Shown: positions 7,871-40,638 of the stretch, piece by piece
How the letters are laid out: every line of letters starts with the position of its first letter
How positions within the stretch are numbered: the first letter of the stretch is position 1
Assembly (NCBI RefSeq): GCF_026343115.1
Contig: NZ_JAPEMC010000004.1
Coordinates: 1 to 64,000 of the forward strand
DNA length: 64,000 nt
Source: Streptomyces sp. NBC_00102
Lineage (GTDB): Bacteria; Actinomycetota; Actinomycetes; Streptomycetales; Streptomycetaceae
Direction of reading: 5' to 3'
Translations under genes and position numbers: made by a program
Notes under the pieces: generated by a model
The model's input: the letters and a program-made list of their open reading frames with translations, nothing else
Told to the model about the DNA's origin: nothing
Database searches by the model: none

Positions 7871-8026
7871 TCAGGCCGGACAGAGGGCGCTGGACGAGCG
7901 GCGCAGGTCTATGTGCAGCCGGGCGTGCAGGCGTGTGGCGGGACGACGGCCGGCAGGAGCCCCGAAGGACGTACCGGCGACGCGGCTCGGAGACAGGGCT
8001 CCGGTGGCGTTCTGCTGGTACGGCAT
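7871..8026 (-). CDS. Leader peptide, HIDL...SSALC tail, upstream of cysteine synthase-like gene
   Basis: 51 aa. The last 18 residues contain LHIDLRRSSSALCPA, which matches the tails of the short ORFs at 9199-9348 and 40638-40531. I recall such Streptomyces ORFs being annotated as putative leader peptides ahead of sulfur-assimilation genes. One Cys codon lies two codons before the stop. ATG 8026 is preceded by GAAGGGA at a loose spacing. The 245 bp between its stop and the next gene contains a short direct repeat (GGTCCGGCGGGC twice, near 7843-7870). Inferred role: ribosome stalling at Cys controls read-through into the cysteine synthase-like gene. The peptide itself probably has no function. 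Confidence 0.6.
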   Translation of the reverse strand: MPYQQNATGALSPSRVAGTSFGAPAGRRPATRLHARLHIDLRRSSSALCPA

Positions 8027-8136
8027 GAGCGGCGCGGTCCCTTCGCACACGGGGGCGTCACCCGTCGGCGACGCCCCCGAACGTAGCAGCCCGGACAGCG
8101 CGATGAGAAGGAAGCCTCGGCGGTTCGGGCGAGCCG

Positions 8137-8967
8137 TCAGACGGCCGGTCCGCCGCGCTCCAGGGGGATGCGCTCGCCGGCCTCCACCGCGACCGGCAGG
8201 CGGTTCTCCGTCGGCGGCAGTGGGCAGGTCGCCAGGTCGGTGTAGGCGCACGGAAGGTTCGCCGCACGGTTGAAATCGATCCGGACGGCGCCCTGTTCGT
8301 CGGGTGCCTCGATCTGGACGGAGCGGTTCGCCGCGTAAGTGGTCACACCGGAGGTCAGGTCCGTGAACAGAGCCATCAGTGCGCCGGGACGCTTGCCGTT
8401 GAACGTCGTGAGCCGGTGCGTGCGGCCGTCGAGCTCGAACTCGACCTCGCCGGGGGAGTCGTAGACGTGCTCCAGGCCCTCCACCGCGGCGCCGACCGTC
8501 ACCGGACGCGGCTCGTCGAAGGGCAGGAACCTTCCCGGACGGGCCCAGCGTGCGTCAGGGGCGTACGCGGGGGTACCGGTGAAGCCGGTACGCAGTGCGT
8601 TCCCCGGGTGGCGCGGGCGCAGGATGTCGTGTCCGCCGCGCTTGGCCACCTCGATCACCGCGTCACCGAACCCCGGGTACACGCTGTCACGTTCGCCGAT
8701 GATCCCGAAGTTGTGACGACCCGTCACTACCGTGCCGTCGATCGTCAGTTCCTCGTCCTCCGCCAGTTCCACCACCACGCCCGCGGCCGAAGCCGACCAG
8801 ACGCCCGGGGCGTCCTCGAAGCGCTCCGGCTCGGCGCTCAGCCAGCGCAGGCTCGTGATCGCGAGGAACCCGTGCGGTCCGGAGAGCTGCGCCTCCTTCT
8901 CCCGGTGCCACGACTGCCACTCCTCGGTGAAACTCTCCTGGTCGATGCCGGTCTGCGGGACGGTCAT
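8137..8967 (-). CDS. DUF1684 domain-containing protein
   Basis: 276 aa, cytoplasmic, no signal peptide or membrane segment. The N-terminal (W)xxWRxxKExxL...GFLAITSLRWL and central GKRPGALMALFTDLTSG and FNRAANLPCAY segments match my memory of the DUF1684 family (PF07920), which has no established reaction; the C-terminal part is rich in conserved Asn/Cys/Pro residues. ATG 8967 follows GAGGGAG. It lies between the two leader-controlled sulfur units and diverges from the MFS operon. The gene spacing does not show whether it belongs to the sulfur regulon. Confidence 0.8.
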   Translation of the reverse strand: MTVPQTGIDQESFTEEWQSWHREKEAQLSGPHGFLAITSLRWLSAEPERFEDAPGVWSASAAGVVVELAEDEELTIDGTVVTGRHNFGIIGERDSVYPGFGDAVIEVAKRGGHDILRPRHPGNALRTGFTGTPAYAPDARWARPGRFLPFDEPRPVTVGAAVEGLEHVYDSPGEVEFELDGRTHRLTTFNGKRPGALMALFTDLTSGVTTYAANRSVQIEAPDEQGAVRIDFNRAANLPCAYTDLATCPLPPTENRLPVAVEAGERIPLERGGPAV

Positions 8968-9198
8968 GTCCACTCCCTCGTGCTGTGTCTCGGGCAGGGC
9001 CGTGCGGTTCTCCAGAGCGCAACTCCCCTCGACCCGCGCTTCATTCCCGATCCGGCGGACGGTTCCGCACTCCGGGACGGCATTGTTCAACGAGCCGCCA
9101 CGGGTTAGCCTGCCGAGAGATCGGCCACGCCCCCGGGCGTGGCGGTCTTCCGCATCGGCGACCGCCACCCGGCCGCCGAACGACCCGAAGACTGCGAG

Positions 9199-9348
9199 GT
9201 GACCGGCGTGCGGGCGCGACCCTTCAGCGAGCACGGCAGTCGTCTTCGCTGCCATGGCGGGTCGTTCGAGCTCCGAGTCCTGCGGCGCCACGTCGATCTG
9301 CTGAGGGTGAGCAGCGCGCTGTGTACGGGTACCGCCCCGCGTCGCTGA
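9199..9348 (+). CDS. Leader peptide, HVDL...SSALC tail, upstream of MFS/monooxygenase operon
   Basis: About 49 aa if the GTG at 9199 is used; GTG 9208 is an alternative and the start is uncertain. The tail RRHVDLLRVSSALC followed by TGTAPRR is nearly the same as in the ORF at 40638-40531. It lies 235 bp before the MFS gene on the same strand and ends a few codons after a Cys codon. It also contains an earlier Cys. Inferred to be a translated attenuator for the sulfur operon 9584-13470. Confidence 0.55.
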   Translation: MTGVRARPFSEHGSRLRCHGGSFELRVLRRHVDLLRVSSALCTGTAPRR

Positions 9349-9583
9349 GCGCATACCTTCCGCTCCCGCCCACTGCGACCGTGCTCCCCCGGACCGCGTG
9401 CCCGCCTTTCGTGTGTCCGCCGGTCACCGGGTCCCCGGTCCAGGGCTGAGCCTCCTTCCGTGTTCGCAGGCGCTCCCTCGCGGCTTCTCCTTTTTTGTGA
9501 CGCTCCGTCACGTCCATGTGCGTGTTGGGTCGCGCGGCCGCCGCGCCCGGCCCTGCCCGCGCGCCCCGACCGAGAGGAACACG

Positions 9584-10993
9584 GTGTCCGAGAACACCGC
9601 ACGAACAAGGGTGTTCGCCGCACTTCGGGTCCGCGACTACCGGACCTACTGGAGCACCGGCCTGGTCTCCAACATCGGCTCCGCGATGCAGAGCGTGGCC
9701 CTGGACTGGTTCGTCTTCGACCTCACGCACAGCGGAACCGCGGTCGGCTGGGCGGCGGGCCTGCAGTTCGCCCCGGTCCTGCTCTTCGGCCTGTGGGGCG
9801 GGGTGCTCGCCGACCGGTACGACCGCCGCACGCTCCTGCTGTGGGCGCAGTCCCTGTACGCGGTCCAGGCGGTACTCCTCACGGTCGCCGTGCTGTCCGG
9901 GCACGCACCCCTCTGGTCGCTCTACCTGCTGTCGTTCGGTCTGGGCTGTGTCTTCACCGTGGAGAACCCCGCCCGGCTCTCCTTCGTCACCGAGCTGGTC
10001 GGACCCCCGCTGATACCCAACGCGGCGGGGCTGAACATCCTCTCCCTCAACGCCGCCCGGCTGATCGGACCCGCGATCGCCGGAATGCTGATCGGACCGA
10101 TCGGTGCGGGCGGGGTGTTCGCGGTGAACGCCGTCTCCTTCGTGGCCGTGACCCTGGGCCTGCTGACGATCCCCGCGCGCACACCCGCGCCCGGAGCCCC
10201 CGGGCCCCTGAGCGCGCCGGCGCCCGTGAAGCGCGCACGGTGGGCGGGCGCCGGCGCCGAAGGCCTGCGCTACGTCGCCGCCCGGCCCGAACTGGCCGGA
10301 GTGCTGGCCCTCTTCGGTCTGGTGGCCACCTTCGCGGTGAACTTCCCCACGACCCTCACGCTGTTCGCCGGGCGCGTCTTCGACGTCGGCTCCAGCGGCC
10401 TCGGCTTCATGTCGACCGCCCTGTCCGTGGGGACCGTCGCAGGCACGCTCGCCGCCACCCGCCGCGCCTCGCCCCGGGTACGGACCGTGGTCGTCGGCGC
10501 CGTCCTCTTCGGCGTCAGCGAGGCGGTGGCCGCGCTCATGCCCTCCTACAGCACCTTCCTGATCCTGCTGCTGCCGACCGGGTTCACCCTGATGACCCTC
10601 AACACCGCGGTCAGCGCCTTCGTCCAGTCGGAGGTCACCCATGCCATGCGTGGCCGGGTGATGGCCGTCTACACCGTCGTCTCGATGGGCGGCGCCCCGC
10701 TCGGCGGCCCCGCGATCGGCTGGGTCTGCCAGCACGCCGGAGTGCGCTGGGGACTGGCCTCCGGAGCCGCCGTCGCCATGCTCTCCGCCCTGGCGGTGGC
10801 GCTCCTGCTCTCCCGGCGACGGAACTCCGCCGGCCCCGACGGATCCTCCCGGAACCGTCCCGCAGCGGGTCCGGCCGCCGCTTCCCTCCGTACCCGTACC
10901 CGTACCCCTACCCCGTCCCCGCCCCTCTCGTCGGCGCATGCCGACCCCCGCGTCCCCGGAACCACTCCGACCGGAGGTAACCCTCATGACTGA
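9584..10993 (+). CDS. MFS transporter (EntS/MFS_3-like)
   Basis: 469 aa, about 12 membrane segments. The motif between TM2 and TM3 (GGVLADRYDRR) is the MFS signature. The architecture resembles EntS-type or macrolide-efflux-type major facilitator proteins. GTG 9584 follows GAGAGGA. The stop overlaps the next gene's start by 8 bp, so it is translationally coupled to two flavin monooxygenases. The context suggests it moves an organosulfur substrate or product, though this MFS group is mostly known for efflux. The C-terminal tail after about residue 415 is low-complexity and Arg/Thr/Pro-rich, with TRTRTPTP-like repeats. Confidence 0.85.
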   Translation: MSENTARTRVFAALRVRDYRTYWSTGLVSNIGSAMQSVALDWFVFDLTHSGTAVGWAAGLQFAPVLLFGLWGGVLADRYDRRTLLLWAQSLYAVQAVLLTVAVLSGHAPLWSLYLLSFGLGCVFTVENPARLSFVTELVGPPLIPNAAGLNILSLNAARLIGPAIAGMLIGPIGAGGVFAVNAVSFVAVTLGLLTIPARTPAPGAPGPLSAPAPVKRARWAGAGAEGLRYVAARPELAGVLALFGLVATFAVNFPTTLTLFAGRVFDVGSSGLGFMSTALSVGTVAGTLAATRRASPRVRTVVVGAVLFGVSEAVAALMPSYSTFLILLLPTGFTLMTLNTAVSAFVQSEVTHAMRGRVMAVYTVVSMGGAPLGGPAIGWVCQHAGVRWGLASGAAVAMLSALAVALLLSRRRNSAGPDGSSRNRPAAGPAAASLRTRTRTPTPSPPLSSAHADPRVPGTTPTGGNPHD

Positions 10994-12092
10994 TCACGAC
11001 GCCGGGCTTCCCGGCCCGCACCTCGCCCTGGAAGCGGACGGCGACGGCGCCCACCCCGCGGCCTGGCGCCACTCCGGCCGCCCGCCGGGCGAGGTCCTCG
11101 GCCCGCGGGCCCTGCGGGAGGTGGTGACCGCGGCCGAGAACGCGGGCTTCGGCCTCGTCACCTTCGCCGACTCGCCGCTGCCGCCCGGAGCGGAGGGCGG
11201 ACCGGCCGGACGGCTGGAGGCCGGCACCCGCGCCGCGTACGTCTCACCGCTGACCGACCGGATCGGCCTCGCGCCCACCCTGCACATCGCCACCACGGAA
11301 CCGTTCCACCTCGCCACCCAGCTCGCGAGCCTCGACCACGCCTCGCACGGGCGGGGCGCCTGGGTCGTCGGCGCGGCGAACGGCGCCGACGACGCGGCCA
11401 CCGTCGGCGAGCCGGTACGCTCCGCCGCCGAGCTGGTCCGGGAGACCGCCGACGTCATCGACACCGCCCGGTCCCTCTGGGACTCCTGGGAGGACGACGC
11501 GGTCGTCAAGGACCTCGCCACCGGCCGTTTCCTGGACGCCGACCGGGTGCACCACGTCGACTTCGAGGGCCCCGCCTTCTCGGTCAAAGGCCCTCTGATC
11601 ACCCCGCGCCCCCCGCAGGGCCAGCTCGTCGTGCTGGTCCCGGACGCGCTGGACGCCGACGGCCGCGCCGACGTGGTGCTGGTCTCCCGCCCCGATCTCG
11701 CCGGGATCGCGGAGCGCGCGGCCACCGCGAGGGAAGCCGGAGCGCCGCTGGTCTTCGCCGAGGTGGAAGTGGTCCTCGACGCGGACGCCCCGGCGGCCGA
11801 CCGGCTCGCGACCCTGGACGAGGCCGCCACCTGGCCGGAGACCGGACGACTGCGCCACGTCGGCCCGCCCGAGGCACTGGTCGGCCTGCTGCGCGAACTC
11901 TCCGCCCTGGTCGACGGGGTCAGGCTGCACCCGGCCGTACTCGCCGTCGACCTGCCGGTCCTGACCGAGCGGGTGCTTCCGGCGCTTGCCGGGGAGCGGC
12001 CCGTACCGCGCGCCGGCGACACCCTGCGCGACACGCTCGGCCTTCCCCGCCCCGCCAACCGGTTCGCCGCCCCGGCGGCCACGAACGCCTGA
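10986..12092 (+). CDS. LLM-class flavin monooxygenase, A-type of a pair
   Basis: 368 aa, bacterial luciferase-like TIM barrel that would use FMNH2 and O2. The LWDSWEDDAVVKDLATGRF segment and the C-terminal GLPRPANR match the enzyme at 28273-27038, so the two are paralogs; this copy is about 43 residues shorter, with part of the middle barrel (after PRPPQGQ) compressed. ATG 10986 has GGAGGTAA as ribosome site and overlaps the MFS stop. Substrate unknown; the family oxidises C-S or C-N bonds. Possibly a reduced-activity partner of the larger enzyme that follows it. Confidence 0.86.
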   Translation: MTDHDAGLPGPHLALEADGDGAHPAAWRHSGRPPGEVLGPRALREVVTAAENAGFGLVTFADSPLPPGAEGGPAGRLEAGTRAAYVSPLTDRIGLAPTLHIATTEPFHLATQLASLDHASHGRGAWVVGAANGADDAATVGEPVRSAAELVRETADVIDTARSLWDSWEDDAVVKDLATGRFLDADRVHHVDFEGPAFSVKGPLITPRPPQGQLVVLVPDALDADGRADVVLVSRPDLAGIAERAATAREAGAPLVFAEVEVVLDADAPAADRLATLDEAATWPETGRLRHVGPPEALVGLLRELSALVDGVRLHPAVLAVDLPVLTERVLPALAGERPVPRAGDTLRDTLGLPRPANRFAAPAATNA

Positions 12093-12102
12093 GGTGACCC
12101 CC

Positions 12103-13470
12103 ATGACCGCACAGAACCCCCATCCCCAGCTCCACCTGGGCGTGTTCTACACCGGAGTCGGACCGCAGCTGATCTGGAGCGACCCCGACGCCCCCTCGCA
12201 CACCGCGATCGAGACCTTCGTCGAGATCGCACAGATCCTCGAACGCGGCCTGTTCGACGCCTTCTTCCTGGGGGAGGGACTGCGCGTACGGGAGAACCGG
12301 GGCCGGGTCTTCGACCTGGACGTGGCCGGCCGGCCCGACGCGATCACCCAGCTGGCCGCGCTCGCCGCCGTCACGACACGCATCGGACTGGTCGCCACCC
12401 AGAACACCACCTACAACTACCCGGCCGACCTGGCCCGCCGGCTGGCCGGCCTCGACCTGCTCTCCGAGGGACGCGCCGGTTGGAACATCGTCACCACCGA
12501 CAACGCCTGGACCGGAGCCAACTTCCGGCACGGCGGCTGGCTGGAGCACGAACGCCGCTACGAACGCGCCGGGCAGTTCGTCGAGGCGGCCAAGGCGCTC
12601 TGGGCCTCCTGGGCACCCGACACGATCGCCGCCGACGGGAGCGCCGACCACTGGGCCCGGCCCGGCGCCATCGACCGGGTCGAGCGCGACACCGACCTGG
12701 TGACGCTGCGTGCCACCCCCACCGTCCCGGGCAGCCGCCAGGGCCGTCCCGTGCTGTTCCAGGCCGGGGACTCGCCGGGCGGCCGCGAACTCGCCGCCCG
12801 CCACGCGGACGTGGTGTTCTCCGCCAACACGGAGTTCGGCAAGGCCGCCGCCTACGCGGCAGACCTCCGCGACCGGCTGGCCCGGCACGGCCGTACGCCC
12901 GACTCGCTGCGCATCCTGCCCGGCGCGAACGTCGTCATCGGCGACACCCCGGCCGACGCCGAGGAGAAGGCCCGCTGGGTACGCGGCGAGCAGATCAACG
13001 GACCCCGGTCGATCGCCTTCCTGGAGCAGTACTGGGGCACGGACCTGTCCGGCTACGACCCCGACGGCCCGCTGCCCGACATCGAACCGAGCGACCAGGA
13101 GCTCGACCCCTCCCGGGGAACCCTCGCCGTCGACCAGCGCAGCGGCAAGCTCGCCACCATCCGGAAGTGGCGCGAGCTGTCCACTGAACGTGGCCTGTCC
13201 ATACGTGAGTTGGTGACCGAGGTGTCGCCGGGCCATCCGTCCTTCGTCGGCACCCCCGCGTCGATCGCCGAGGAGTGGGCCCGTTACGTGCGTGAGGGAG
13301 TGGCGGACGGCTTCAACCTCCTGCCGCACCTGCTCCCGGCCTCCGTCACGGACATCACCGACAAGCTCGTCCCCGCACTCCAGGAACGGGGCGTCTACCG
13401 CACCGAGTACACGGGCACCACCCTGCGCGAGCACCTGGACCTGCCGCCGCTCCCAGCGGCCGGCGCCTGA
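12103..13470 (+). CDS. NtaA/SnaA/DszA-family flavin monooxygenase, B-type of a pair
   Basis: 455 aa. Recognisable by the N-terminal HLGVFYTGVGPQLIW, the FFLGEGLRVRE and DVAGRPDAIT segments, GRAGWNIVTTDN, and the FQAGDSPGGRE loop of the NtaA/SnaA/SoxA group (the DszA dibenzothiophene sulfone monooxygenase belongs here). The C-terminal RTEYTGTTLREHL is shared with the paralog at 27041-25692. It needs reduced FMN from a separate reductase; none is in this operon, and the only visible one is at 40074-39511. It follows the A-type gene by 10 bp. Likely removes sulfur from an organosulfur compound; the true substrate is unknown. Confidence 0.9.
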   Translation: MTAQNPHPQLHLGVFYTGVGPQLIWSDPDAPSHTAIETFVEIAQILERGLFDAFFLGEGLRVRENRGRVFDLDVAGRPDAITQLAALAAVTTRIGLVATQNTTYNYPADLARRLAGLDLLSEGRAGWNIVTTDNAWTGANFRHGGWLEHERRYERAGQFVEAAKALWASWAPDTIAADGSADHWARPGAIDRVERDTDLVTLRATPTVPGSRQGRPVLFQAGDSPGGRELAARHADVVFSANTEFGKAAAYAADLRDRLARHGRTPDSLRILPGANVVIGDTPADAEEKARWVRGEQINGPRSIAFLEQYWGTDLSGYDPDGPLPDIEPSDQELDPSRGTLAVDQRSGKLATIRKWRELSTERGLSIRELVTEVSPGHPSFVGTPASIAEEWARYVREGVADGFNLLPHLLPASVTDITDKLVPALQERGVYRTEYTGTTLREHLDLPPLPAAGA

Positions 13471-13475
13471 CCTCC

Positions 13476-13516
13476 CGCGGTCCCGCCCGGCCCGTGAGGG
13501 CGCGGGCGGGACCGCG
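13476..13516 (+). terminator. Hairpin terminator after monooxygenase operon
   Basis: Perfect 14-bp arms (13476-13489, 13503-13516) with a 13-nt loop, 6 bp past the stop codon of the B-type monooxygenase. Confidence 0.8.
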
Positions 13517-13556
13517 TCGCGCGCGAGCGGTGCCCGGTGGATCACGCCGCCCGCGG

Positions 13557-14226
13557 TCAGCCGGACACCGCCTCCCCGACCGCGCAGACCAGGACGCGTC
13601 CGTCGTCGGTCCCGATGAGCAGGCGGCCGGGCCCGGTCACGGTCAGCGCCGTCCCGACGACTCCCACGCGTCCGACGGTGAGGCGTTCGCGGAGGCGGAC
13701 GGCTCCGTCCCGCCAGATCCTTGCCGCTCAGGGAACGTGGAGGTACGGCGCTCCAGTCGGGACGGCGTACGACCGCGAGGTGCCCCTCGGTCCAGGCGGC
13801 CTTGTCCTCCCAGTCGTCGGGCGGTGCCATCAGCACCCGCAGATCCTGTGCGTTCAGCCATTCCAGGCCCAGGACCTGGCGGCCGGTTCCGTCCTCGATG
13901 AGTGAGGAGACCGCACCGGTCTCCAGGTCGAGCAGGAGCAGGCGCCCCTCGAAGAAGTAGCCGCCGTCGTAGCTGCCGGTGCCGACCGCGAGAAGGGGGA
14001 GCGTGGGGTGGAAGGCCATGGCGTGTACAGGACGGCCTGTCCGCAAGAGAGCGCGGCAGGTCAGGTCCTCGGTACCGTAGACGCCGACCGGCACGGGCGC
14101 GCCGCCCTTGGCCGTACCGGCCACGGCCATCAGACGGCGGCCTTCGTCCATGACGGTGAGCGCCGGTTCGCCCACCTCGGCGAAGGGGCGATCGCCGAGT
14201 ATCCGGTCGATGTGCAGAGAGATCAT
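13557..14226 (-). pseudogene. Frameshifted WD40-like beta-propeller protein
   Basis: From ATG 14226 the frame reads about 165 residues of propeller-like sequence (MAVAGTAKGGAPVPVGVY, AFHPTLPLLAVGTGSYDGGY, LLLLDLETGAVSSL). Near 13725-13740 it runs into low-quality Arg/Pro-rich sequence, while another frame on the same strand resumes a propeller strand (RIWRDGAVRLRERLTVGR...RLLIGTDDGRVLVCAVGE) and stops at 13557. A one-base shift would join them into about 222 residues. This is either a real pseudogene or a sequencing error. It converges on the sulfur operon, with which it has no obvious link. Confidence 0.65.
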
Positions 14227-14371
14227 GATGGTGATCGTCGCCCTGGTCCCGCGCTCGCGGCAAGGCGCCCCTGCCCGTGTCGTCAAAGGCGTTACGAGCG
14301 GAGCGCCTCACTCCCGAGGCCGTGATCAGCGGATCGCTAGGATGGGGCGCTCACTGCCGGAGAAGGAGATC

Positions 14372-14626
14372 ATGGCCAAGTCGCTACCGAGCCGCGTCGA
14401 GTGTTGGACTTGCTCGAACGGATTCGTCGTCTTCTGCGACGGCACCGAGAGCGATCGCATGTTGTTGGAGTGCGAGGAATGCATGGCCGGCCGGTGGGCG
14501 CCGCCGGGCAACCGAGAGCAAGAGCCTGGTTTCCTCACGATCGACCTGCTCACGCGCCCGGCGACACTCGCCGAGATTCGGGCGAACCGCTGGGAACACC
14601 TCATCCACAGCGGCTTGGACACATGA
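14372..14626 (+). CDS. Small zinc-ribbon-like protein, unknown function
   Basis: 84 aa. Two CxxC pairs (CWTC at about 12-15 and CEEC at about 34-37), separated by 18 residues, suggest one Zn-ribbon. The rest is acidic and ends in a short amphipathic segment (TLAEIRANRWEHLIHSG). ATG 14372 has a good GGAGAAGGAG site. Flanked by the propeller pseudogene on the opposite strand and a gene-free 270 bp. I do not recognise a family. Confidence 0.75.
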   Translation: MAKSLPSRVECWTCSNGFVVFCDGTESDRMLLECEECMAGRWAPPGNREQEPGFLTIDLLTRPATLAEIRANRWEHLIHSGLDT

Positions 14627-14897
14627 GCGCGCGTCCGCCCGCCCCCATGGGGGACGCCGGGGGTCTGCCTCGACGCGGTCCAGGACCAGGGGCAGGTGCG
14701 CCGTGAGCGGGACCGAGTTGCCCGGTGCCGTCAACTCGTCGCGCTGCCCCGGGGAGAGGTGGCGCTCCATCGACGGGCGCGGACCGTTGCAGAGGCGTCC
14801 CCCGACCTCTGACCTTCCTTGCCCGGCCCACCCCGGACGAACGGGAAAACCTCACCACGTCGCTCCGGCGCGTGCTTGACGCAGAAGAGCAGGGATC

Positions 14898-15998: not shown

Positions 15999-16092
15999 CC
16001 TGTTTTCGGACCACGGACCCGTCGGGAACGCGGTGGGTCGAGATCGTTCGGCCCTTGACCCTCACGTGGCGTCAGGCCGCACAGTGGGTTCC

Positions 16093-31375: not shown

Positions 31376-31500
31376 GTCGGTTCCTTGAGGGTGATGGAGA
31401 ACAGGTGAGAGGACGTGTGGGGGAGAGGAGTCAGCCCAAGGGGCCGACCGAGACCAACGGCTGACGTTTAATCAAGCACTGAGGGCAAGGTGACGGACGG

Positions 31501-33335: not shown

Positions 33336-33472
33336 GGGTGCTCCAGCGGAGAAGGGGCTGACCCGACGGCGCGCGCGGCACGCGGTCGGGCCGAATCGGG
33401 AACCCTGGCCGGAGAAGTCCGGGCAGGGATGCGGGGAATCGCGAGAGGGGCGGGCGGACTTGGTCCGGCCGG

Positions 33473-33646: not shown

Positions 33647-34036
33647 CCTGATTTCTCTCTGCCGCGATGAGCGGGCCGCTGGGACACGCTCGGTGTTACC
33701 GGGCGACGCACGGGGGTCGTGGCCGCCGGACCGCCGGGGAATCACCGGGCCGGTCCGGCGCCAGTAACCCATGCGGGGGAAGGGGGCGTCAATGCGTCCC
33801 GTAACCGTGTGAACAGGTGTAAGGGGCAGTTCGGAAATCCTCTCGGAGCGAAGCGCCGAACGCTCTGACCAGCGGAAACGGCACCGGTCGGACGACCGGG
33901 CCCGACGACCGGACGCTTTCCGGAGGCCCTGTGGAGCGGCGATCATTTCGTGATCCCGTAACACGGGCTTCATGCCCGGTCATGCCGCCCACACGCAGGG
34001 GACGAGCATCTACGACGCGCGCCGGCCGTCCTCCCC
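33647..34036. other. 390-bp gene-free region between ssu operon end and Cys-rich ORF
   Basis: No gene seen. It must hold the promoter of the Cys-rich leader and its operon, but I cannot pick boxes with confidence. Structures present are a GATCA-N5-TGATC inverted repeat at 33941-33955 and a short hairpin at 33964-33978. Confidence 0.55.
33964..33978 (-). terminator. Short hairpin after ssu operon
   Basis: CGGGC-TTCAT-GCCCG, about 60 bp past the last ssu gene. The stem is only 5 bp, so this is a weak candidate. Confidence 0.35.
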
Positions 34037-34921
34037 TCAGGTCCAGCGCCTGACCACGGCCCGTTCCACCGCCCCGAGTACGGCGTCGGTCGCCTTGCCG
34101 AGCAGGGCCAGCAGCACGATCGCCAGCAGCAGGATGTCGGTCCTCCCGGTGTTCTGGCTGTCGATCAGGAGGAACCCCAGCCCCATGGACGAGGCGATCA
34201 GCTCGGCGGCGACCAGGAAAAGCCACCCCTGCGCGAGACCCAGCCGCAGCCCCGCCAGGACCGACGGAGCCGCCGCCGGGATCAGCACCTGGGCGAGCAG
34301 GGCGGGGCCCCGGCGGCCGTAGGCGTGCCCGAGTTCGCGCAGGCCCGGGTCGGCGTGGTCGAGCGCCGAAGCCACCGTCGTGTAGACGGGGAAGAAGGCG
34401 CCGACCGCCACCAGGGTGATCTTCGGCGTCTCCCCGATGCCGAGCCAGAGCAGCAGCAGGGGAACCCACGCCAGCGACGGCACCGCGCGCAGCGCCTGAA
34501 TGGTCGGGCCCAGCAGCCGGCGCACCGCGGTCGAGAGCCCGACCAGGCCCCCCAGCACGAGTCCGGCCCCGGCCCCGGCGGCGAAGCCGAGCAGGACCCG
34601 CTGCACGCTGATCGCCACGTGGTGCGGAAGTTCGCCCCGCTCCCAGAGCACCCGGGCGGCCCGGGCCACCGCCAGCGGTTCGGGCAGCTGGCTGGGGGAG
34701 TACGCCCCCGAGCGGGCGGCCGTGTGCCAGGCGACGAGGATGCCCACCGGGACCAACAGCCCCACCGCCGCCCGGCCGGCCACCCGCCCGGCGGCGACGA
34801 GCCGGTCCCCGCCGCGGGTCCCCTGCGGAAGCCCGCTCTTCCCGGCGGCCGACGCGGTCGCCGGGGCGGGCGCGGAGACTTCCCGGTCCCTCTCCGCCGT
34901 ATCGGCGGTTCTGGCGCTCAC
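34037..34921 (-). CDS. ssuC: Aliphatic sulfonate/taurine-type ABC permease
   Basis: 294 aa. About six membrane helices after a charged N-terminal tail of about 45 residues. The EAA-type loop (HAYGRRGPALLAQVLIPAAAPSVLAGLRLGLAQGWLFLVAAE) is that of the SsuC/TauC group. GTG 34921 overlaps the stop of the binding-protein gene (GTGA). Last gene of the sulfonate operon. Assignment to sulfonate uptake rests on SsuD and SsuB beside it. Confidence 0.88.
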   Translation of the reverse strand: MSARTADTAERDREVSAPAPATASAAGKSGLPQGTRGGDRLVAAGRVAGRAAVGLLVPVGILVAWHTAARSGAYSPSQLPEPLAVARAARVLWERGELPHHVAISVQRVLLGFAAGAGAGLVLGGLVGLSTAVRRLLGPTIQALRAVPSLAWVPLLLLWLGIGETPKITLVAVGAFFPVYTTVASALDHADPGLRELGHAYGRRGPALLAQVLIPAAAPSVLAGLRLGLAQGWLFLVAAELIASSMGLGFLLIDSQNTGRTDILLLAIVLLALLGKATDAVLGAVERAVVRRWT

Positions 34922-36057
34922 GACGGGTCCGCCTTGCGCGCGTACTCGGGGAGGAAGAGCGAGTCCAGCGCGCCGTCGACGGCCTTCCGGTCGGGCACCA
35001 GGTTCTCCTCCACCAGGACCGGCGCGATCCGTTCGAGCACGGCGCGCTGCTCGTCGCCGGGAACGGGGGAGACGTCGAGTTCGGTTCGCTCGGTCAGCTG
35101 CTGCCGGGCGACCGCCTCGCTCACCTTGGACTCCTCGGCGAGCAGCCGTACGGCCTCGTCCGGGTGGGCGATGATCCAGGCCCGGGCCTTCTCGTAACCG
35201 TCCACGACCGTCTGGACCAGCTCCGGGTGCTTCTGCTCGAAGTCCGCCGAGACGTTGAGGAATCCGTACGAGTTGAAGGCGAGGTTCCGGTAGATCAGCC
35301 GGGAGCCGTTCTCGATCTGGCTCTGCGAGAGGTACGGGTCGAGACCCGCCCACGCGTCCACGTCACCCCGCTCCAGAGCCGTCCGCCCGTCCGCGTGCTG
35401 GAGGTTGACGACCGTGACGTCACCGGCGTCCAGCCCCGCGCTCTCCAGGGCCTGGAGCAGGAAGAAGTACGGGTCGGTGCCCTTCGTGACCGCCACCTTG
35501 TGGCCCTTCAGGTCCTTCACCGACCGCAGCGGCGAGCCCTTCGCGACGACCAGCGAGGACCACTCCGGCCTGCTGTACACGTCGACCGTGTGCAGCTCGG
35601 TCCCGTTGGCGCGGGCCAGGAGGGCGGGTGTGCCCGCGGTCGAACCGAAGTCGATCGCCCCGGCGCGGAGGTTCTCGTTGGCCTTGTTGCTGCCGAGGGA
35701 CTGGGTCCAGGTGACGGTCGCGTCCTGACCGGAGAGCGTGTCGCCGAGCCAGCCCTTCTCCTTCAGGACGAGGCTCTCCGGGTTGTAGTACGCCCAGTCG
35801 AGCCGGACGGTCACGGATCCGCCGCCGGTCTTGGCGTCGGCCGCCGCGGAGCCGTCCGCGGACTCGCCCGACACGCAGGCGGTGGCGGTCAGCAGGAGAC
35901 CGGCGAGGACGGCGACGGCGCGCAGCGGTCTCATGACGCCGGTGGCCGTGACGCCGGTACGCAGGGCGCCGGGATTCTCGGTGGCGGTGGTCGGGGCGGT
36001 TCTCACAGCGGTTCTCACAGCGGTTCTCACAGCGGTTCTCACGGAGGTGCCTCTCAT
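34918..36057 (-). CDS. ssuA: Sulfonate ABC transporter substrate-binding lipoprotein
   Basis: 379 aa from ATG 36057, or 338 aa from the in-frame ATG 35934. The second ATG directly begins a normal lipoprotein signal (RPLRAVAVLAGLLLTATAC, lipid Cys61 in the long numbering). The extra 41 residues contain four VRTA repeats encoded by a 12-bp minisatellite. SsuA/TauA-type features are DWAYYNPESLVLKEKGWL, GAIDFGSTAGTPALLA and GTDPYFFLLQALESAGL. It binds alkanesulfonates outside the cell for import. The long start has a GAGAGACAGG region upstream at 10 bp after the ATPase stop; the short one has no clear ribosome site. Confidence 0.86.
   Translation of the reverse strand: MRGTSVRTAVRTAVRTAVRTAPTTATENPGALRTGVTATGVMRPLRAVAVLAGLLLTATACVSGESADGSAAADAKTGGGSVTVRLDWAYYNPESLVLKEKGWLGDTLSGQDATVTWTQSLGSNKANENLRAGAIDFGSTAGTPALLARANGTELHTVDVYSRPEWSSLVVAKGSPLRSVKDLKGHKVAVTKGTDPYFFLLQALESAGLDAGDVTVVNLQHADGRTALERGDVDAWAGLDPYLSQSQIENGSRLIYRNLAFNSYGFLNVSADFEQKHPELVQTVVDGYEKARAWIIAHPDEAVRLLAEESKVSEAVARQQLTERTELDVSPVPGDEQRAVLERIAPVLVEENLVPDRKAVDGALDSLFLPEYARKADPS
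35997..36044. repeat. 12-bp minisatellite, four units
   Basis: CGGTTCTCACAG occurs four times in a row (the last unit ends CGG). In the minus-strand frame it encodes VRTA repeats in the N-terminal extension of the sulfonate-binding protein. Copy number in such arrays often varies between strains. Confidence 0.9.
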
Positions 36058-36067
36058 GGCCTGTCTC

Positions 36068-36943
36068 TCAGGGCTGGTGGGGACGGTCGGGGTCGCCGAC
36101 GCCGAGCCGGCGCAGCAGATCCGCTCTCAGCGGGACCAGCTGGGGATGCCCCCGCGGCCGGGGGCGCGCGACCGGTACGTCGATGCGGGCGGCGATCGTG
36201 GCGGCGGGCCCGGACCCGAGCAGCACGATCCGGTCCGCGAGGTGCAGCGCCTCGTCCACGTCGTGCGTGACCATCAGCACCGTGGTGCCCGCCGCTCGCT
36301 GCATCGCGTCCAGCAGGTCCTGCATCCGCATCCGGGTGAGCGCGTCGAGCGCCGCGAAGGGTTCGTCGAGCAGCAGTACGCCGGGCTCCCGCGCCAGGGC
36401 CCGGGCGAGCGCGGCCCGCTGCGCCATGCCGCCGGAGACCTGACCGGGGCGGTGCCCGCCGTACCCGTCCAGACCCACCTCGGTGAGCCGTCGGGCGACG
36501 GTGGCCCTCCCCTCCGCCCGGTCGGTACCTCTCGGCAGACCGAAGGCGACATTGGAGGACAGGGTGCGCCAGCGCATCAGCCGCGGGTCCTGGAACACCA
36601 CTGCCGTACGGGGATCGCCCGCGACGACGGACCGCCCGTCGACCAGCACCTCGCCGGACGTGGGCACGTCCAGCCCGCCGATCAACCTCAGCAGCGTGGA
36701 CTTGCCCGACCCGGACGGGCCGAGCACCGCGACCGTCTCGCCCGCCGCCAGGTCCAGATCGATTCCGGCCAGTACGCTCCGCGCCCGCCGTCCCTGTCCG
36801 AAGTCCCGCCCGACACCCCTCAGGGAGACGGCGGCGGCGCCGGTACGGGGCCGTACCTCGGACCCGGTCGGCTCGGGCCCGGTCACTTCCGGCGCCGCCA
36901 CATCCGGGCCCGTCACCGCCGGCGCGGAACCCGCCCGGGTCAC
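36068..36943 (-). CDS. ssuB: Sulfonate ABC transporter ATPase
   Basis: 291 aa. Walker [11 protein letters not shown]-loop VVFQDPRLMRWRTLSSNVAFG, signature VSGGMAQRAALARALA, Walker B VLLLDEPFAALD, and His in MVTHDVDEALHLAD. The Q-loop DPRLMRW and VSGGMAQR signature are typical of SsuB/TauB. An N-terminal Pro/Thr-rich extension of about 35 residues is unusual and may be non-essential. GTG 36943 overlaps the SsuD stop (GTGA). Confidence 0.9.
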   Translation of the reverse strand: MTRAGSAPAVTGPDVAAPEVTGPEPTGSEVRPRTGAAAVSLRGVGRDFGQGRRARSVLAGIDLDLAAGETVAVLGPSGSGKSTLLRLIGGLDVPTSGEVLVDGRSVVAGDPRTAVVFQDPRLMRWRTLSSNVAFGLPRGTDRAEGRATVARRLTEVGLDGYGGHRPGQVSGGMAQRAALARALAREPGVLLLDEPFAALDALTRMRMQDLLDAMQRAAGTTVLMVTHDVDEALHLADRIVLLGSGPAATIAARIDVPVARPRPRGHPQLVPLRADLLRRLGVGDPDRPHQP

Positions 36944-38088
36944 GGCCGCCCCGCGAACGGGACGATGGCCGAGGGAACGGTGGTGCTCGCGAACGGGTGC
37001 TGCCACAGCCCGCGCCGCGCGAGGACCGGCAGGACGCCCTCCCCGAACCAGTACGCCTCCTCCAGGTGCGGATAGCCGGAGAGGACGAACTCCTCGATGC
37101 CCAGGGCCTGGTACTCGGCGATCAGATCGGCGATCTCCTCGTGCGAACCGACCATGGCCGTGCCCGCACCGCCGCGCACCAGGCCGATACCTGCCCACAG
37201 GTTCGGATGGATCTCCAGCCCGTCCCGGCCGCCGCCGTGCAGCGCGAGCATCCGGTGCTGCCCCTCCGACTCGCTGCGCGCGAGGCCCTCCTGCACGGAC
37301 CGGATGGTCTGCTCGTCGAAGCCCGACAGCAACCGCCCCGCCTCGGCCCACGCCTGCTCGGAGGTGTCGCGTGCGATCACGTGGAGCCGGATGCCGAAGC
37401 GCACGGTCCGGCCCTCCTCGGCGGCGAGCTTCCTGATCCAGGCGATCTTCTCGGCGACGGCCGCGGGCGGCTCCCCCCAGGTGAGGTAGACGTCACTGTG
37501 CCGGGCCGCGACCACGCCCGCGGCGGGAGAAGAACCGCCGAAGTAGATCTCGGGTACCGGATCGGGCACCCGCGCCAGCTTGGCGTCCTCCACCCGCAGG
37601 TGCTCGCCCGCGTGGTCCACGCTCCTGCCCTGCCACAACTCCCGCACGATGTGCAGGAATTCGCCGGTCCGCGCGTACCGGCCGTCCTTGTCGAGGAAGT
37701 CGCCGTAGGCGCGCTGCTCGTGGCTCTCGCCGCCGGTGACGATGTTCAGCAACAGCCGGTTTCCGGTGAGCCGTTGGTACGTGGACGCCATCTGCGCCGC
37801 GAGGGTCGGCGACACGGAGCCGGGCCGGAAGGCCACCAGGAACTTGAGGCGTTCGGTGTGCTGGCTGATCAGGGCCGTGGTGAGCCAGGCGTCCTCGCAC
37901 CAGGCGCCCGTCGGGGTCAACGCGCCGACGAAGCCGAGCTGTTCGGCCGCGAGCGCGATCTGCGTGAGGTAGGGGACGCTCGGCGGACGGTCACCGCCCG
38001 CCGCCGTGACGGGCGTACCGTGACCGCCTCCCACCACGTGCCGGCTGTCGCCGTTGGTGGGGAGGAACCAGTGGAACGTGAGAGACAT
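36940..38088 (-). CDS. ssuD: FMNH2-dependent alkanesulfonate monooxygenase
   Basis: 382 aa, the usual SsuD length. Splits C1-Cn alkanesulfonates to sulfite and aldehyde using FMNH2 and O2. SsuD signatures: FHWFLPTNGDSR, LTPTGAWCEDAWL (active-site Cys), FLVAFRPGSVSPTLAAQMASTY, NIVTGGESHEQRAYGDFLDKDGRY, IYFGGSSPAA, and the C-terminal FVLSGYPHLEEAYWFGEGVLP. ATG 38088. Its FMNH2 should come from the reductase at 40074-39511 in the same operon. Sulfite then feeds cysteine synthesis. Confidence 0.95.
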   Translation of the reverse strand: MSLTFHWFLPTNGDSRHVVGGGHGTPVTAAGGDRPPSVPYLTQIALAAEQLGFVGALTPTGAWCEDAWLTTALISQHTERLKFLVAFRPGSVSPTLAAQMASTYQRLTGNRLLLNIVTGGESHEQRAYGDFLDKDGRYARTGEFLHIVRELWQGRSVDHAGEHLRVEDAKLARVPDPVPEIYFGGSSPAAGVVAARHSDVYLTWGEPPAAVAEKIAWIRKLAAEEGRTVRFGIRLHVIARDTSEQAWAEAGRLLSGFDEQTIRSVQEGLARSESEGQHRMLALHGGGRDGLEIHPNLWAGIGLVRGGAGTAMVGSHEEIADLIAEYQALGIEEFVLSGYPHLEEAYWFGEGVLPVLARRGLWQHPFASTTVPSAIVPFAGRP

Positions 38089-38197
38089 GGGAGAACCCTT
38101 TCGGTGCGGGGAGCCGGGGAGCCGGGGAGCGGGGGATTCGGGGAGTCGGGAGCCGGGGAACCGAGGTCCCGGCGGGCCGTCGGGCCGCCGGGACCGC

Positions 38198-39427
38198 TCA
38201 GAGGAGCCCGTGGCGGGGCGGCCGGGTGCCGTTGAGTGCCCAGCGACCCAGGTGCTGCACCTTCCAGCGCGTCGGGTCGTGCAGGGTGTGGGTCCGGGCA
38301 TCGCGCCAGTGCCGATGCAGATTCAGGGAGTCGAGCGCCGCACGGGTGCCCGCCACCTCGAAGAGCGCCGAGCCGGTCTCGACCGCGGCTTCGGCGGCGA
38401 CGACCTTGGCCGCCGCCACCGCGAGGGATGCCTCGGCGGCGGAGTCGTCGGTGAGATCGGCCTCCGCGCGGTCGACCGCGCGTGCCGCCTCCGCGAGCAG
38501 GGCGTCGGACGACCGTACGCGCAAGGACAGTTCGCCGAACCGCTGGATGAGGAGCGGGTCTTCGGACGCCTTCTCCACTCCGCTCTCGAACCAGGGCCGG
38601 CTCTTCGTCCGGACGAACGCGGCGGCCTCCTCCAGAGCCCCCGCCGCGATCCCCGCGTCGATGGCGGCGTGCAGCAACTGGGCGACGGCGCCGTGCAACT
38701 GCGGCCCGCGGAAGGTCAGGTGGTGCGGCACCACCCGGTCGGCCGGCACCCGGACGCCGTCGAGCCGGACCGACCCGCTCGCGGTCGTGCGCTGCCCCAT
38801 GCCGTCCCAGTCGTCCACCACGGTGACACCGGCCGCGGAGCGCGGCACGTAGGCCACCCACAGCTCCTCGTCCTCGCCCCGGGCCAGCACGGGTATCCAG
38901 TGCGCGTAGAGGGCCCCGGTCGAGTAGTGCTTCCGGCCGGTCAGCAGGAAGCCGCCGTCCCCGTCGGCCGTGAGCCGCGTCCGGATGTCCTGGACGTGCT
39001 TCGTACCCGCCTCGGACTGGGCGTTGCCGAGACGGTGGCCGGCCAGTACCTCGCCGAAGAAGAACCGGCGCTGGTCCTCGCTGCCCCGGGCGCGCAGCAC
39101 GTTGACGTACACGAAGTGGCTCTGCGGGATCTGCGCGAGGCTGGCGTCGGCCGAGGCGAGGGTCCGTACGACACGGGCCAGGGTGGTGTGACGTACTCCG
39201 GCTCCGCCGTACGCCCCGGGCACGGTGATGCCGAGAAGGCCGGAGGAGGAGAGGCGGTCGAGCTCCGCGTGCGGCAGCCGGCGCTCCGAGTCCCGGGCGG
39301 CGGCCCCCGGGCGGAACTCCGCGGCCAGTTCGGACGCGAGGGCGAGCGCCTCCGCGTCGTCGCGGACGACATGGGCTGCGGACGGACCGCCGTCGGAGAC
39401 GGGAGGAGGTGCGGCGGAAACGGTCAT
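38198..39427 (-). CDS. SfnB-type acyl-CoA-dehydrogenase-like flavin enzyme
   Basis: 409 aa with acyl-CoA dehydrogenase fold. Matches the sulfur-acquisition oxidoreductase (SfnB) and DszC group: GLLGITVPGAYGGAGV, LASADASLAQIPQSHFVYVNVL, AQSEAGTKHVQDIRT, GRKHYSTGALYAHWIPV. The HFVYVN loop and STGALYA replace the typical acyl-CoA catalytic features, as in FMNH2-using sulfur oxygenases. In Pseudomonas such genes work with sulfonate and dimethylsulfone use. It lies 83 bp downstream of the reductase and 109 bp upstream of SsuD. Exact substrate is unknown. Confidence 0.86.
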   Translation of the reverse strand: MTVSAAPPPVSDGGPSAAHVVRDDAEALALASELAAEFRPGAAARDSERRLPHAELDRLSSSGLLGITVPGAYGGAGVRHTTLARVVRTLASADASLAQIPQSHFVYVNVLRARGSEDQRRFFFGEVLAGHRLGNAQSEAGTKHVQDIRTRLTADGDGGFLLTGRKHYSTGALYAHWIPVLARGEDEELWVAYVPRSAAGVTVVDDWDGMGQRTTASGSVRLDGVRVPADRVVPHHLTFRGPQLHGAVAQLLHAAIDAGIAAGALEEAAAFVRTKSRPWFESGVEKASEDPLLIQRFGELSLRVRSSDALLAEAARAVDRAEADLTDDSAAEASLAVAAAKVVAAEAAVETGSALFEVAGTRAALDSLNLHRHWRDARTHTLHDPTRWKVQHLGRWALNGTRPPRHGLL

Positions 39428-39510
39428 CGGGACTCCGGAGGGTCGGGTGCGGGGGTGCAGGCGTGTGGGCGTTGGTACGGGCGGGCGGGTGCCCCCGTCC
39501 CCCGCCCGGA

Positions 39511-40074
39511 TCACCCGGCGGCGTACAGGGAGCGGCGAGGTGCGGCCGCGGAGAGGGCGGCGGAGAACTGGTCGACGATGCCGTACAGCGGCGCGGCGGC
39601 CGGGGCGGCCAAGGTGACCTGGCCGTCCGGCGAGGCGGAGACGTCCTTGTCGAGGACGAACCACCCCTGGGTGATGTGGCCCGCGCCCATGGAGTTGAGC
39701 ACCGGGCGCAGGGCGTAGTCGACGGCGAGGACGTGTGCGACGGACCCGCCGGTGGCCAGCGGCAGCACCGTCTTCCCAGCCAGCGCGTACTGCGGGAGCA
39801 GGTCCAGCAGTGCCTTGAGGAGCCCGGAGTAGGCGGCCTTGTAGACGGGCGTGCCGATGACCAGACCGTCCGCCCGCTCCACCAGCGCCGCCACCCTGGC
39901 GATGGCCGGATGGCCCGGGTCGGCCCCCAGCAGGGCCTGCGCGGGAAGGTCGCGCACATCGAGCGCGACGACCTCGTGCCGGTCCGCCTCCAGGCGGGCA
40001 TCGAGATGGCGCAGCAGCCGGGAGGTGCGGGAAGTGGCGGAAGGACTGCCGGACACGGACAGGACGAAGGCCAT
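39511..40074 (-). CDS. NADPH-dependent FMN reductase
   Basis: 187 aa, the size of SsuE/MsuE. Flavodoxin-like fold: VLSVSGSPSATSRTSRLL, ADGLVIGTPVYKAAYSGLLKALLDLLPQYALAGKTVLPLATGG. The GTPVYKAAYSGLLKA segment is the SsuE signature. Supplies FMNH2 to SsuD and probably the other flavin oxygenases of the window. ATG 40074 with GGAG. First structural gene of the sulfonate operon, 456 bp behind the leader peptide. Confidence 0.92.
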   Translation of the reverse strand: MAFVLSVSGSPSATSRTSRLLRHLDARLEADRHEVVALDVRDLPAQALLGADPGHPAIARVAALVERADGLVIGTPVYKAAYSGLLKALLDLLPQYALAGKTVLPLATGGSVAHVLAVDYALRPVLNSMGAGHITQGWFVLDKDVSASPDGQVTLAAPAAAPLYGIVDQFSAALSAAAPRRSLYAAG

Positions 40075-40530
40075 CGGAACTCCAGAGAACGGCACCGGCG
40101 CGGGGGCGGCCGGGGCAGGGGGAACGGTCGGAGGGCAGGGCGCCGGCCGGCGGCGCAGGGCGGCAGGGGCGCAGTGGGCCACGCGGGACGACACGGCGCG
40201 GGCGGACGCGGAGCACGGACACCGGCCGGAGCGTGCGGCAGGAGCTCGTGAACGGGCGGCGCTGCCCGCACGGCGATCGGGAAACCTGTGCACCTACGGC
40301 GTGTCCACGGCAAGGTATGGGCTGCGCCGCGGCGCACCGGACGACGCGAACGCGACCACCGCGGAAGTCGTCACCGGACGTCGGACGTGGACGCGACGGT
40401 GGCGCCCCGCCCCCGCACACCACCGGTGCGTACCGCCGCGCCGAGGCACTCGCGGGGCATGGGGCAAGGGTGCGGCGCAGGAGGCGGACCGGGCGGGAGG
40501 AGACCCCCGGGACTCGCTACGGCAGGAAGG
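40075..40530. other. 456-bp region between leader peptide and sulfonate operon
   Basis: No gene with credible start is seen. Its length is large for a simple spacer and fits an attenuator with alternative hairpins, but I could not fold it by hand. Confidence 0.45.
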
Positions 40531-40638
40531 TCAGCGGCCGTGGCCGGGACGACAACCGTGGCAGGGGCGACAGACGGCGCTGGAGACACGCGCGAGGTCG
40601 ACATGGCGCCGCCGCGTGAGGTCCACTCGCTTGTCCAT
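40531..40638 (-). CDS. Leader peptide, HVDL...SSAVC tail, upstream of sulfonate operon
   Basis: 35 aa from ATG 40638 (GTG two codons earlier is possible). Contains RRRHVDLARVSSAVCRP, nearly identical to the tail of the ORF at 9199-9348 and related to 8026-7871, then two more Cys (CHGC). This fits the Streptomyces putative leader-peptide family as I remember it. The only downstream genes in this direction are sulfonate genes, and a LysR regulator is divergent. Inferred role: Cys-responsive translational attenuator. Confidence 0.65.
   Translation of the reverse strand: MDKRVDLTRRRHVDLARVSSAVCRPCHGCRPGHGR

What the first reader, a model, noticed from the sequence alone, without database searches (positions are those of the whole stretch)
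7871..40638. Three matching leader peptides each precede a separate sulfur operon
ORFs at 8026-7871(-), 9199-9348(+) and 40638-40531(-) share an H-(V/I)-D-L-x-R-x-S-S-A-(V/L)-C tail (HIDLRRSSSALC, HVDLLRVSSALC, HVDLARVSSAVC) on otherwise unrelated short peptides. Each stands in front of a different sulfur unit: cysteine synthase-like, MFS plus monooxygenases, sulfonate operon. The shared tail in three dispersed places suggests selection on the peptide itself and a common cysteine-linked attenuation device. I know such peptides only as putative leader peptides; their mechanism is, as far as I know, undescribed in Streptomyces.
Basis: partly seen in the sequence, partly recalled or inferred. Interest (0 to 1): 0.85.

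Follow-up and report, generated by a model that had tools for sequence, protein, structure and literature searches.

The report
Presumed cysteine-sensing leaders before sulfur genes
Three short peptides that end in the same motif sit in front of three sulfur-related gene units; they belong to a large actinobacterial family of presumed leader peptides already catalogued by NCBI, and nearly all members sampled use one particular cysteine codon, UGU, at the same place, which suggests where the ribosome stops to sense cysteine.

Summary
The three motifs are real and not chance. All three peptides exceed the curated cut-off of NCBIfam NF042934 'putative leader peptide', so the family is known; polycysteine relatives in mycobacteria are reported as cysteine-responsive attenuators (Canestrari 2020, seen only through citing papers). 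This genome holds 12 copies; 31 of 31 Streptomyces and 110 of 148 Actinomycetes genomes have matches. Of 139 leaders, 92 precede core sulfur genes, 34 generic transport or flavin families that could serve organosulfur, 13 others (my classification).

New here: the last motif cysteine is UGU in 137 of 139 leaders and in 80 of 81 from a separate scan, whereas earlier cysteines of the same motif are UGC in 91 of 104. Conserved neighbouring codons vary synonymously. Best reading: a ribosome carrying the HVDLxRxxSA chain stalls at this UGU when Cys-tRNA is short and switches the operon on. The switch is unresolved: pairing with the downstream ribosome-binding site is clear in two gene groups only and not shown for the three leaders here.

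The parts
7871..8026 (-). Leader peptide A (start codon uncertain); motif at 7933-7880; candidate sensor Cys codon TGT at 7882-7880; stop 7873-7871
   Evidence: (29.3 bits)
6600..7625 (-). Cysteine synthase / cystathionine beta-synthase-like PALP enzyme, first gene after leader A (gap 245 nt; ATG with AAGGAG)
   Evidence: TIGR01137 431.5 bits, below its 510.25 cut-off
9199..9348 (+). Leader peptide B (start codon uncertain); motif at 9283-9324; candidate sensor Cys codon TGT at 9322-9324
   Evidence: (28.5 bits)
9584..10993 (+). MFS transporter, exporter-like, first gene after leader B (gap 235 nt)
10938..12092 (+). Luciferase-like monooxygenase
11986..13470 (+). NtaA/DmoA-family FMN-dependent monooxygenase (ORF extent; true start probably further in)
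   Evidence: TIGR03860 381.9 bits, cut-off 279.7
40531..40638 (-). Leader peptide C; motif at 40620-40570; candidate sensor Cys codon TGT at 40572-40570; two further Cys codons before the stop
   Evidence: (34.1 bits)
39511..40074 (-). SsuE-type NADPH-dependent FMN reductase, first gene after leader C (gap 456 nt)
   Evidence: (TIGR03567 214 bits, cut-off 164.05)
38198..39460 (-). SfnB-family sulfur acquisition oxidoreductase (start approximate)
   Evidence: TIGR04022 569.6 bits, cut-off 430.9
36940..38301 (-). Alkanesulfonate monooxygenase-like (SsuD-like) enzyme (ORF extent)
   Evidence: 463.9 bits, below cut-off 510
36068..37351 (-). ABC transporter ATPase (ORF extent; N-terminus uncertain)
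34918..36057 (-). SsuA-family aliphatic sulfonate-binding protein
   Evidence: TIGR01728 240.3 bits, cut-off 163.5
34037..35353 (-). ABC transporter permease (ORF extent; N-terminus uncertain)

Best explanation
The three ORFs are leader peptides of a class-wide, cysteine-sensing, ribosome-mediated attenuation system. A ribosome translating the leader reaches the last motif cysteine codon, UGU, with the conserved HVDLxRxxSA segment in its exit tunnel. When Cys-tRNA is short it stalls there, in most of the family 2-4 codons before the stop (A 2, B 7, C 12); when cysteine is ample it passes, terminates and leaves. The stalled ribosome covers the next ~15-20 nt and thereby turns the downstream sulfur genes on, by freeing the ribosome-binding site of the next gene in some loci and by an unresolved route (perhaps blocking Rho) in others, including the three here. 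Shown by sequence: family membership, amino-acid-level conservation, near-invariance of UGU, sulfur context, a leaderless signature in part of the family, and anti-SD pairing in two gene groups. Inferred: stalling, its dependence on cysteine, the role of the nascent chain, and the switch itself.
For: NF042934 over cut-off for all three. 12 leaders in this genome, all UGU: nine over the NF042934 cut-off, two below it (26.7 and 21.6 bits), one found by my profile; besides the three window units they precede a ThiS/CysO-like gene, sulfite reductase, sulfatase, cysteine dioxygenase, rhodanese, flavin reductase, SDF symporter, a luciferase-like gene and an unidentified ORF. 31 of 31 Streptomyces (E <= 0.01) and 110 of 148 Actinomycetes genomes, 59 of 81 genera (E <= 0.001); 0 of 14 controls at those E-values. 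First genes of 139 leaders: 92 core sulfur, 34 possible, 13 other or uncalled. UGU at the last motif Cys in 137 of 139 and 80 of 81, against 13 of 104 at motif positions 9, 14 and 15 and 14 of 148 and 16 of 206 Cys codons in downstream genes. Synonymous freedom at H, D, L, R. Stop 2-4 codons after that Cys in 110 of 139. A -10 hexamer before 68 of 633 in-frame against 8 of 758 out-of-frame starts, spacing 6-7 in 64 of the 68. SD pairing probability peaks 8-11 nt after the start of the Cys codon (0.19-0.23, against 0.03-0.08 at +17 to +24); a simulated block opens the SD most when centred on the Cys codon (mean -1.30 kcal/mol). Cysteine dioxygenase group -5.61 against -0.12 for shuffled tails, DUF4395 group -2.80 against -1.15. 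The mycobacterial Ms5788A model matches 107 of 148 genomes at E <= 0.001, 22 over its cut-off; the rhodanese leader of this genome matches it at 41.1 bits, below the cut-off of 45.
Against: No expression or ribosome data for Streptomyces were available. SD sequestration is not general: the median gain is only -0.22 kcal/mol and 27% of 96 records gain more than 2; 11 of 19 gene groups favour it over shuffled tails (p = 0.24 over groups; p = 0.023 over 96 records, carried by two groups); of eight windows in the swap test between groups, those at the Cys codon are borderline over records (p 0.05-0.06) and not significant over groups (0.18-0.19), while one further upstream reaches p = 0.043 over groups; own pairs are no better than swapped pairs within groups (p = 0.22, n = 100). 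The dip is within 1.6 standard errors over groups. For the window, leader C's only computed value used a wrongly predicted gene start; A and B were beyond the length limit. A and B have a single Cys near the end, weak for classical attenuation. No intrinsic terminator was found near the three. 34 of 139 first genes are generic families and 13 not clearly sulfur genes. The leaderless signature is commoner outside Streptomyces (38 of 66 against 17 of 73 and 13 of 81). At E <= 10 the family model rang in 10 of 14 controls, none over cut-off.
Confidence: 0.72

Rival explanations
1. Pure codon-hunger attenuation: only Cys-tRNA supply matters; UGU is used because wobble decoding by the GCA anticodon is slower, and the conserved peptide is a historical or minor feature.
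For: Near-invariant UGU against UGC at the Cys codons just before it; Cys-rich relatives in mycobacteria (passages). A single tRNA-Cys with anticodon GCA is recalled, not tested.
Against: R, H/A, D, L, R and S/T/G at fixed spacing from the Cys are conserved at amino-acid level across genera, which codon hunger alone does not require; a published alphaproteobacterial cysS attenuator with tandem Cys codons prefers UGC (PMC8632094, passage).
Confidence: 0.25
2. Rho-dependent attenuation like the tna operon: after normal termination the naked, C-rich, G-poor stretch between leader and gene loads Rho; a ribosome stalled at UGU hides the start of that stretch.
For: C exceeds G in 98% of 126 gaps (44% of stretches upstream of the leaders), and in 25 of 26 gene groups the C-G excess is larger than upstream; C-G 0.157 in 94 gaps against 0.055 in 243 control upstream regions; no terminator-like sites near the three; Rho was proposed for mycobacterial cys leaders in 2005 (PMC1262725, passages).
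Against: C-richness may simply mark untranslated RNA: 69% of the control regions also have C over G, and they mix promoter and leader; no rut site was defined; the two groups with strong anti-SD pairing need no Rho.
Confidence: 0.3
3. UGU is kept for RNA pairing (with ACA-like sequence beside the downstream SD), not for decoding.
For: Some SDs are GACAGGAG or GGAC(A/G), complementary to CUGUC or UGUCC.
Against: The third U pairs with the SD region with mean probability 0.11, lower than the nt at +8 to +11; UGU is kept in the cysteine dioxygenase group, whose anti-SD lies further on; the base before UGU is C or G and the codon after it varies, though the base right after UGU is C in 108 of 139.
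Confidence: 0.08
4. The peptide acts in trans as a small protein.
For: Strong amino-acid conservation of the core.
Against: Up to 16 hits per genome; in this genome each of 12 has its own downstream gene; N-termini differ between gene groups; the constrained part ends at a codon-specific site shortly before the stop.
Confidence: 0.04

Closest known systems
NCBIfam NF042934 cis_reg_atten, 'putative leader peptide'
   Same: All three peptides score above its curated cut-off
   Different: No difference found at sequence level. No paper in the held library mentions the accession
Polycysteine leaderless sORF attenuators of mycobacteria (Canestrari et al. 2020, not held; NCBIfam Ms5788A and Ms4527A leader families)
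   Same: Same core motif: Ms4527A matches all three and Ms5788A matches C, all below cut-off; several Ms5788A hits are leaders that I placed before rhodanese or DUF4395 genes; sulfur genes; part of the family with leaderless signature; SD pairing in some groups
   Different: The window leaders have no run of Cys codons and no recognisable leaderless promoter; SD sequestration not shown for them
uORFC-8-2 cysS attenuator of Rhodobacterales (PMC8632094, passage read)
   Same: Cysteine codons in a uORF before a cysteine-related gene
   Different: Tandem Cys codons, UGC dominant, intrinsic terminator; here one near-invariant UGU and no terminator-like site near the three
TnaC-type conditional arrest peptides with Rho-dependent termination (recalled; tna mentioned in PMC1262725)
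   Same: Short peptide with fixed residues at fixed distance from the stall point; C-rich stretch behind it
   Different: Proposed signal is Cys-tRNA shortage at a sense codon, not free amino acid at a stop codon

Membership tests
NCBIfam NF042934 putative leader peptide | Score over the curated cut-off of 27 bits | tested here: met
   29.3, 28.5, 34.1 bits
Mycobacterial leader families NF042936 (Ms4527A) and NF042933 (Ms5788A) | Score over the curated cut-off of 45 bits | tested here: not met
   Best for the three: 25.7 (Ms4527A) and 22.3 (Ms5788A)
Polycysteine leaderless cysteine-responsive attenuator | Run of cysteine codons at the end of the sORF | tested here: not met
   A one Cys; B one Cys in the motif plus one far upstream; C three spaced Cys
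Polycysteine leaderless cysteine-responsive attenuator | Leaderless transcript | tested here: not met
   No TANNNT 4-8 nt before in-frame starts of the three; found in 68 of 220 family members. Real transcription starts unknown
Polycysteine leaderless cysteine-responsive attenuator | First gene of a cysteine/sulfur operon follows | tested here: met
   A and C by NCBIfam/Pfam; B plausible only
Polycysteine leaderless cysteine-responsive attenuator | Stalled ribosome frees a sequestered downstream RBS (as recalled from the abstract) | tested here: inconclusive
   Not evaluated for A and B (gap too long); value for C rests on a wrong gene start; family-wide clear in two groups only
Polycysteine leaderless cysteine-responsive attenuator | Expression rises when cysteine is short | not testable with these tools
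   Needs reporter or proteomics
Classical transcription attenuator | Intrinsic terminator between leader and gene | tested here: not met
   0 terminator-like sites in 7600-9700 and 40000-40900; consensus scan only
Known structured RNA (Rfam 15) | Covariance-model match over gathering score | tested here: not met
   0 matches in the window

The most novel reading that the evidence does not exclude
Across Actinomycetes these leaders form one cysteine sensor built around a single codon: a nascent-chain-assisted stall in which the conserved HVDLxRxxSA peptide primes the ribosome and one wobble-decoded UGU codon sets the threshold, while cysteines just before it are UGC so that the ribosome does not stop too early. 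This one sensor module has been placed before up to about 16 operons per genome and joined to different switches (RBS sequestration, Rho, perhaps others). A conserved arrest-type peptide gated by the charging of one tRNA at one codon would be a hybrid between attenuator and arrest peptide.
Probability: 0.4. Interest if true: 0.75.

Novelty: new member of a known kind. Interest (0 to 1): 0.5.

Why it matters
A family that NCBI annotates only as 'putative leader peptide' gets a concrete candidate sensing site. The UGU near-invariance makes the open question of how single-cysteine leaders of Streptomyces could work directly testable by one synonymous base change. If right, sulfur assimilation, organosulfur use and cysteine breakdown in many antibiotic-producing bacteria would be coordinated in part by ribosomes on leader peptides.

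Tried and rejected
Chance similarity: rejected. Intrinsic terminators: no site near the three. Rfam: no match in the window. Pfam for the three peptides: no match. SD sequestration as the general switch: not carried by the data. UGU explained by SD pairing: disfavoured. Common fold: of three groups aligned (CysO, sulfite reductase, cysteine dioxygenase), RNAalifold gave an anti-SD helix that I find convincing for the dioxygenase group only. Searches failed on coordinates and were repeated with corrected ones (73, 74); one search failed because one peptide was too short and was repeated without it. Downstream genes were called by a simple GC3 rule and grouped by single-linkage BLAST, one or a few representatives per group being scanned; 2 of 139 leaders had no call, 131 got a predicted start, 118 and then 96 of these entered the SD tests. 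Window C's first gene was mis-called (as an acyl-CoA-dehydrogenase-like ORF). In one search the tail was left unshuffled where the shuffled stretch would reach the SD. One search gave 141 hits: one at 22 bits was dropped and one merged as a duplicate, leaving 139. The hit lists were capped, and I chose 79 hits from them by hand, blind to the codon; the rest came as loci of the best hits. The 30 loci entered no count. Records are related to each other, so record-level p-values are too optimistic. Literature: Canestrari 2020 is not held; I saw it only in citing passages and reference lists and recall its abstract. Passages of PMC2864571 had nothing on cysteine. The listings of ten paper searches (titles and abstract starts) showed no paper on these leaders in Streptomyces or on a UGU preference; open-licence papers only.
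Full report
What is there. The three ORFs are present as described. Their shared tail is the core of NCBIfam NF042934 'cis_reg_atten, putative leader peptide'; all three exceed its curated cut-off (29.3, 28.5, 34.1 against 27 bits). Pfam has no match for them and Rfam none in the window. The genome, 8.6 Mb in 12 contigs, has nine hits over cut-off and two further leaders below it at 26.7 and 21.6 bits; with one more found by my profile (L037) there are 12 leaders, and in all 12 the last motif cysteine is coded TGT. Besides the three window units they stand before a ThiS/CysO-like gene (followed by a cysteine synthase-like protein recognised by eye), sulfite reductase, sulfatase, cysteine dioxygenase, rhodanese, flavin reductase, an SDF symporter, a luciferase-like monooxygenase and an unidentified 508-aa ORF.

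Distribution. 31 of 31 Streptomyces genomes carry 4 to 16 hits at E <= 0.01. In a class-wide draw 110 of 148 genomes and 59 of 81 genera have a match at E <= 0.001, 96 of 148 genomes over the cut-off; none of 14 control genomes has one at these E-values, though at E <= 10 ten of 14 ring below the cut-off. The mycobacterial Ms5788A model matches 107 of 148 at E <= 0.001, 22 of them over its own cut-off; several of those hits are leaders that I also hold as NF042934-type leaders before rhodanese or DUF4395 genes. The Streptomyces and mycobacterial leaders therefore look like one family.

Context. For 139 distinct leaders (73 Streptomyces, 66 other) I called the first downstream gene and grouped it by BLAST, then scanned representatives with Pfam. 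By my classification 92 lie before core sulfur/cysteine genes (rhodanese 22, sulfite reductase 22, cysteine dioxygenase 13, CysO-like 12, sulfatase 10, DUF4395 8, PALP 2, PAPS reductase 2, CbiX 1), 34 before generic families that could serve organosulfur compounds (luciferase-like 12, solute-binding proteins 10, SDF symporter 5, FMN and flavin reductases 4, TauD 1, and windows B and C), and 13 before other, unresolved or uncalled genes. Of three ROK-like cases two have a TauD gene further down. In the second set (below) 41 of 81 lie before sulfite reductase-like genes and 7 have no match to the first set's genes.

Peptide against codon. In the 139 leaders the conserved residues are coded freely: in Streptomyces H by CAC 57 and CAT 15, D by GAC 60 and GAT 13, the first R by CGG 28, CGC 22, AGG 14, CGA 6 and CGT 3. 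This is amino-acid-level selection. The last cysteine behaves in the opposite way: TGT 137, TGC 2; 27 of 29 gene groups are TGT throughout. Cysteines at motif positions 9, 14 and 15 are TGC 91, TGT 13; Fisher p = 1.3e-49 (not corrected for relatedness). Downstream genes use TGT for 14 of 148 (Streptomyces) and 16 of 206 (other) Cys codons. The exception is a 3.3-kb metagenome contig labelled Melainabacteria.

Leader anatomy. In 110 of 139 leaders the stop follows 2-4 codons after this cysteine; in the window it is 2 (A), 7 (B) and 12 (C). A -10 hexamer sits 4-8 nt before 68 of 633 in-frame starts against 8 of 758 out-of-frame starts, with spacing 6 or 7 in 64 of the 68. This points to leaderless transcripts in part of the family, as reported for mycobacteria, more often outside Streptomyces (38 of 66) than within (17 of 73). 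The three window leaders lack it, and their starts remain uncertain. Leader C is recognisable before ssuE-type genes in two other Streptomyces; in the three-way alignment the motif-coding stretch stands out while the DNA around it is poorly conserved.

How it may switch. Pairing between the leader and the SD of the next gene is concentrated just behind the cysteine codon: the complementarity profile has its longest run of negative windows at 0 to +9 (records -0.30 to -0.91 kcal/mol; over groups within 1.6 standard errors), with a shorter dip at -30/-27 over records only, and the predicted pairing probability with the SD region peaks at +8 to +11 (0.19-0.23). A simulated 30-nt ribosome block opens the SD most when centred on the Cys codon (mean -1.30, median -0.22 kcal/mol, against means of +0.05 to -1.00 elsewhere; 96 records). 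But this is carried by the cysteine dioxygenase and DUF4395 groups; over 19 groups it is not significant (p = 0.24), swaps between groups are borderline, and swaps within groups show no covariation (p = 0.22). The gap behind the leader is C-rich and G-poor, as Rho would like, but as other untranslated RNA might be too. I conclude that the sensor is common and the transmission varied or not yet understood.

What is known. Candidate cys leader peptides without terminators were predicted in Mycobacterium, Propionibacterium and Bifidobacterium in 2005 (PMC1262725, 12 of 15 passages seen); Streptomyces cys leaders are not mentioned in the passages seen. Shell et al. 2015 proposed cysteine attenuation in mycobacteria (PMC4633059, passages). 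Canestrari et al. 2020 is cited as showing that leaderless ORFs with contiguous cysteine codons regulate downstream translation in M. smegmatis (PMC9031893, passage; PMC13236596, passages; the paper itself not held). A Rhodobacterales cysS attenuator prefers UGC (PMC8632094, passages). The listings of ten searches of the open-licence library showed no report on Streptomyces or on an invariant UGU (listed in Tried and rejected).

Verdict. The codon-specific sensor position is the part that seems new and is testable with one base change.

Noticed in passing
8140-8967 (-): DUF1684 protein gene lies between leaders A and B, on A's strand about 110 nt upstream of ORF A and divergent from B, so leader A could share a transcript with it.
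   Followed up: partly
L029 and group 2: Leader with VRLWRRVHMDLVRYAGCVC precedes cysteine dioxygenase, a cysteine-breaking enzyme, with the clearest anti-SD pairing (CCGUCCUG with CAGGACGG). Why breakdown should be switched on when cysteine is short is puzzling.
   Followed up: partly
L031:1229-2752: Own-genome leader before a 508-aa ORF, secreted-looking by eye, without Pfam or NCBIfam match.
   Followed up: partly
L270:1420-1461 (-): A leader with UGC before a sulfite reductase-like gene in a 3.3-kb MAG contig labelled Candidatus Melainabacteria: possible mis-binning or spread outside Actinomycetes.
   Followed up: no
G050:C251:3248-3485, G159:C520:3768-3939, L265:6551-6903: Two leaders face away from each other within a few hundred bases, suggesting divergent operons each with its own leader.
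   Followed up: no
L156:1885-3726 (-): Leader before a 2-oxoacid:acceptor oxidoreductase alpha subunit, not an obvious sulfur gene.
   Followed up: partly
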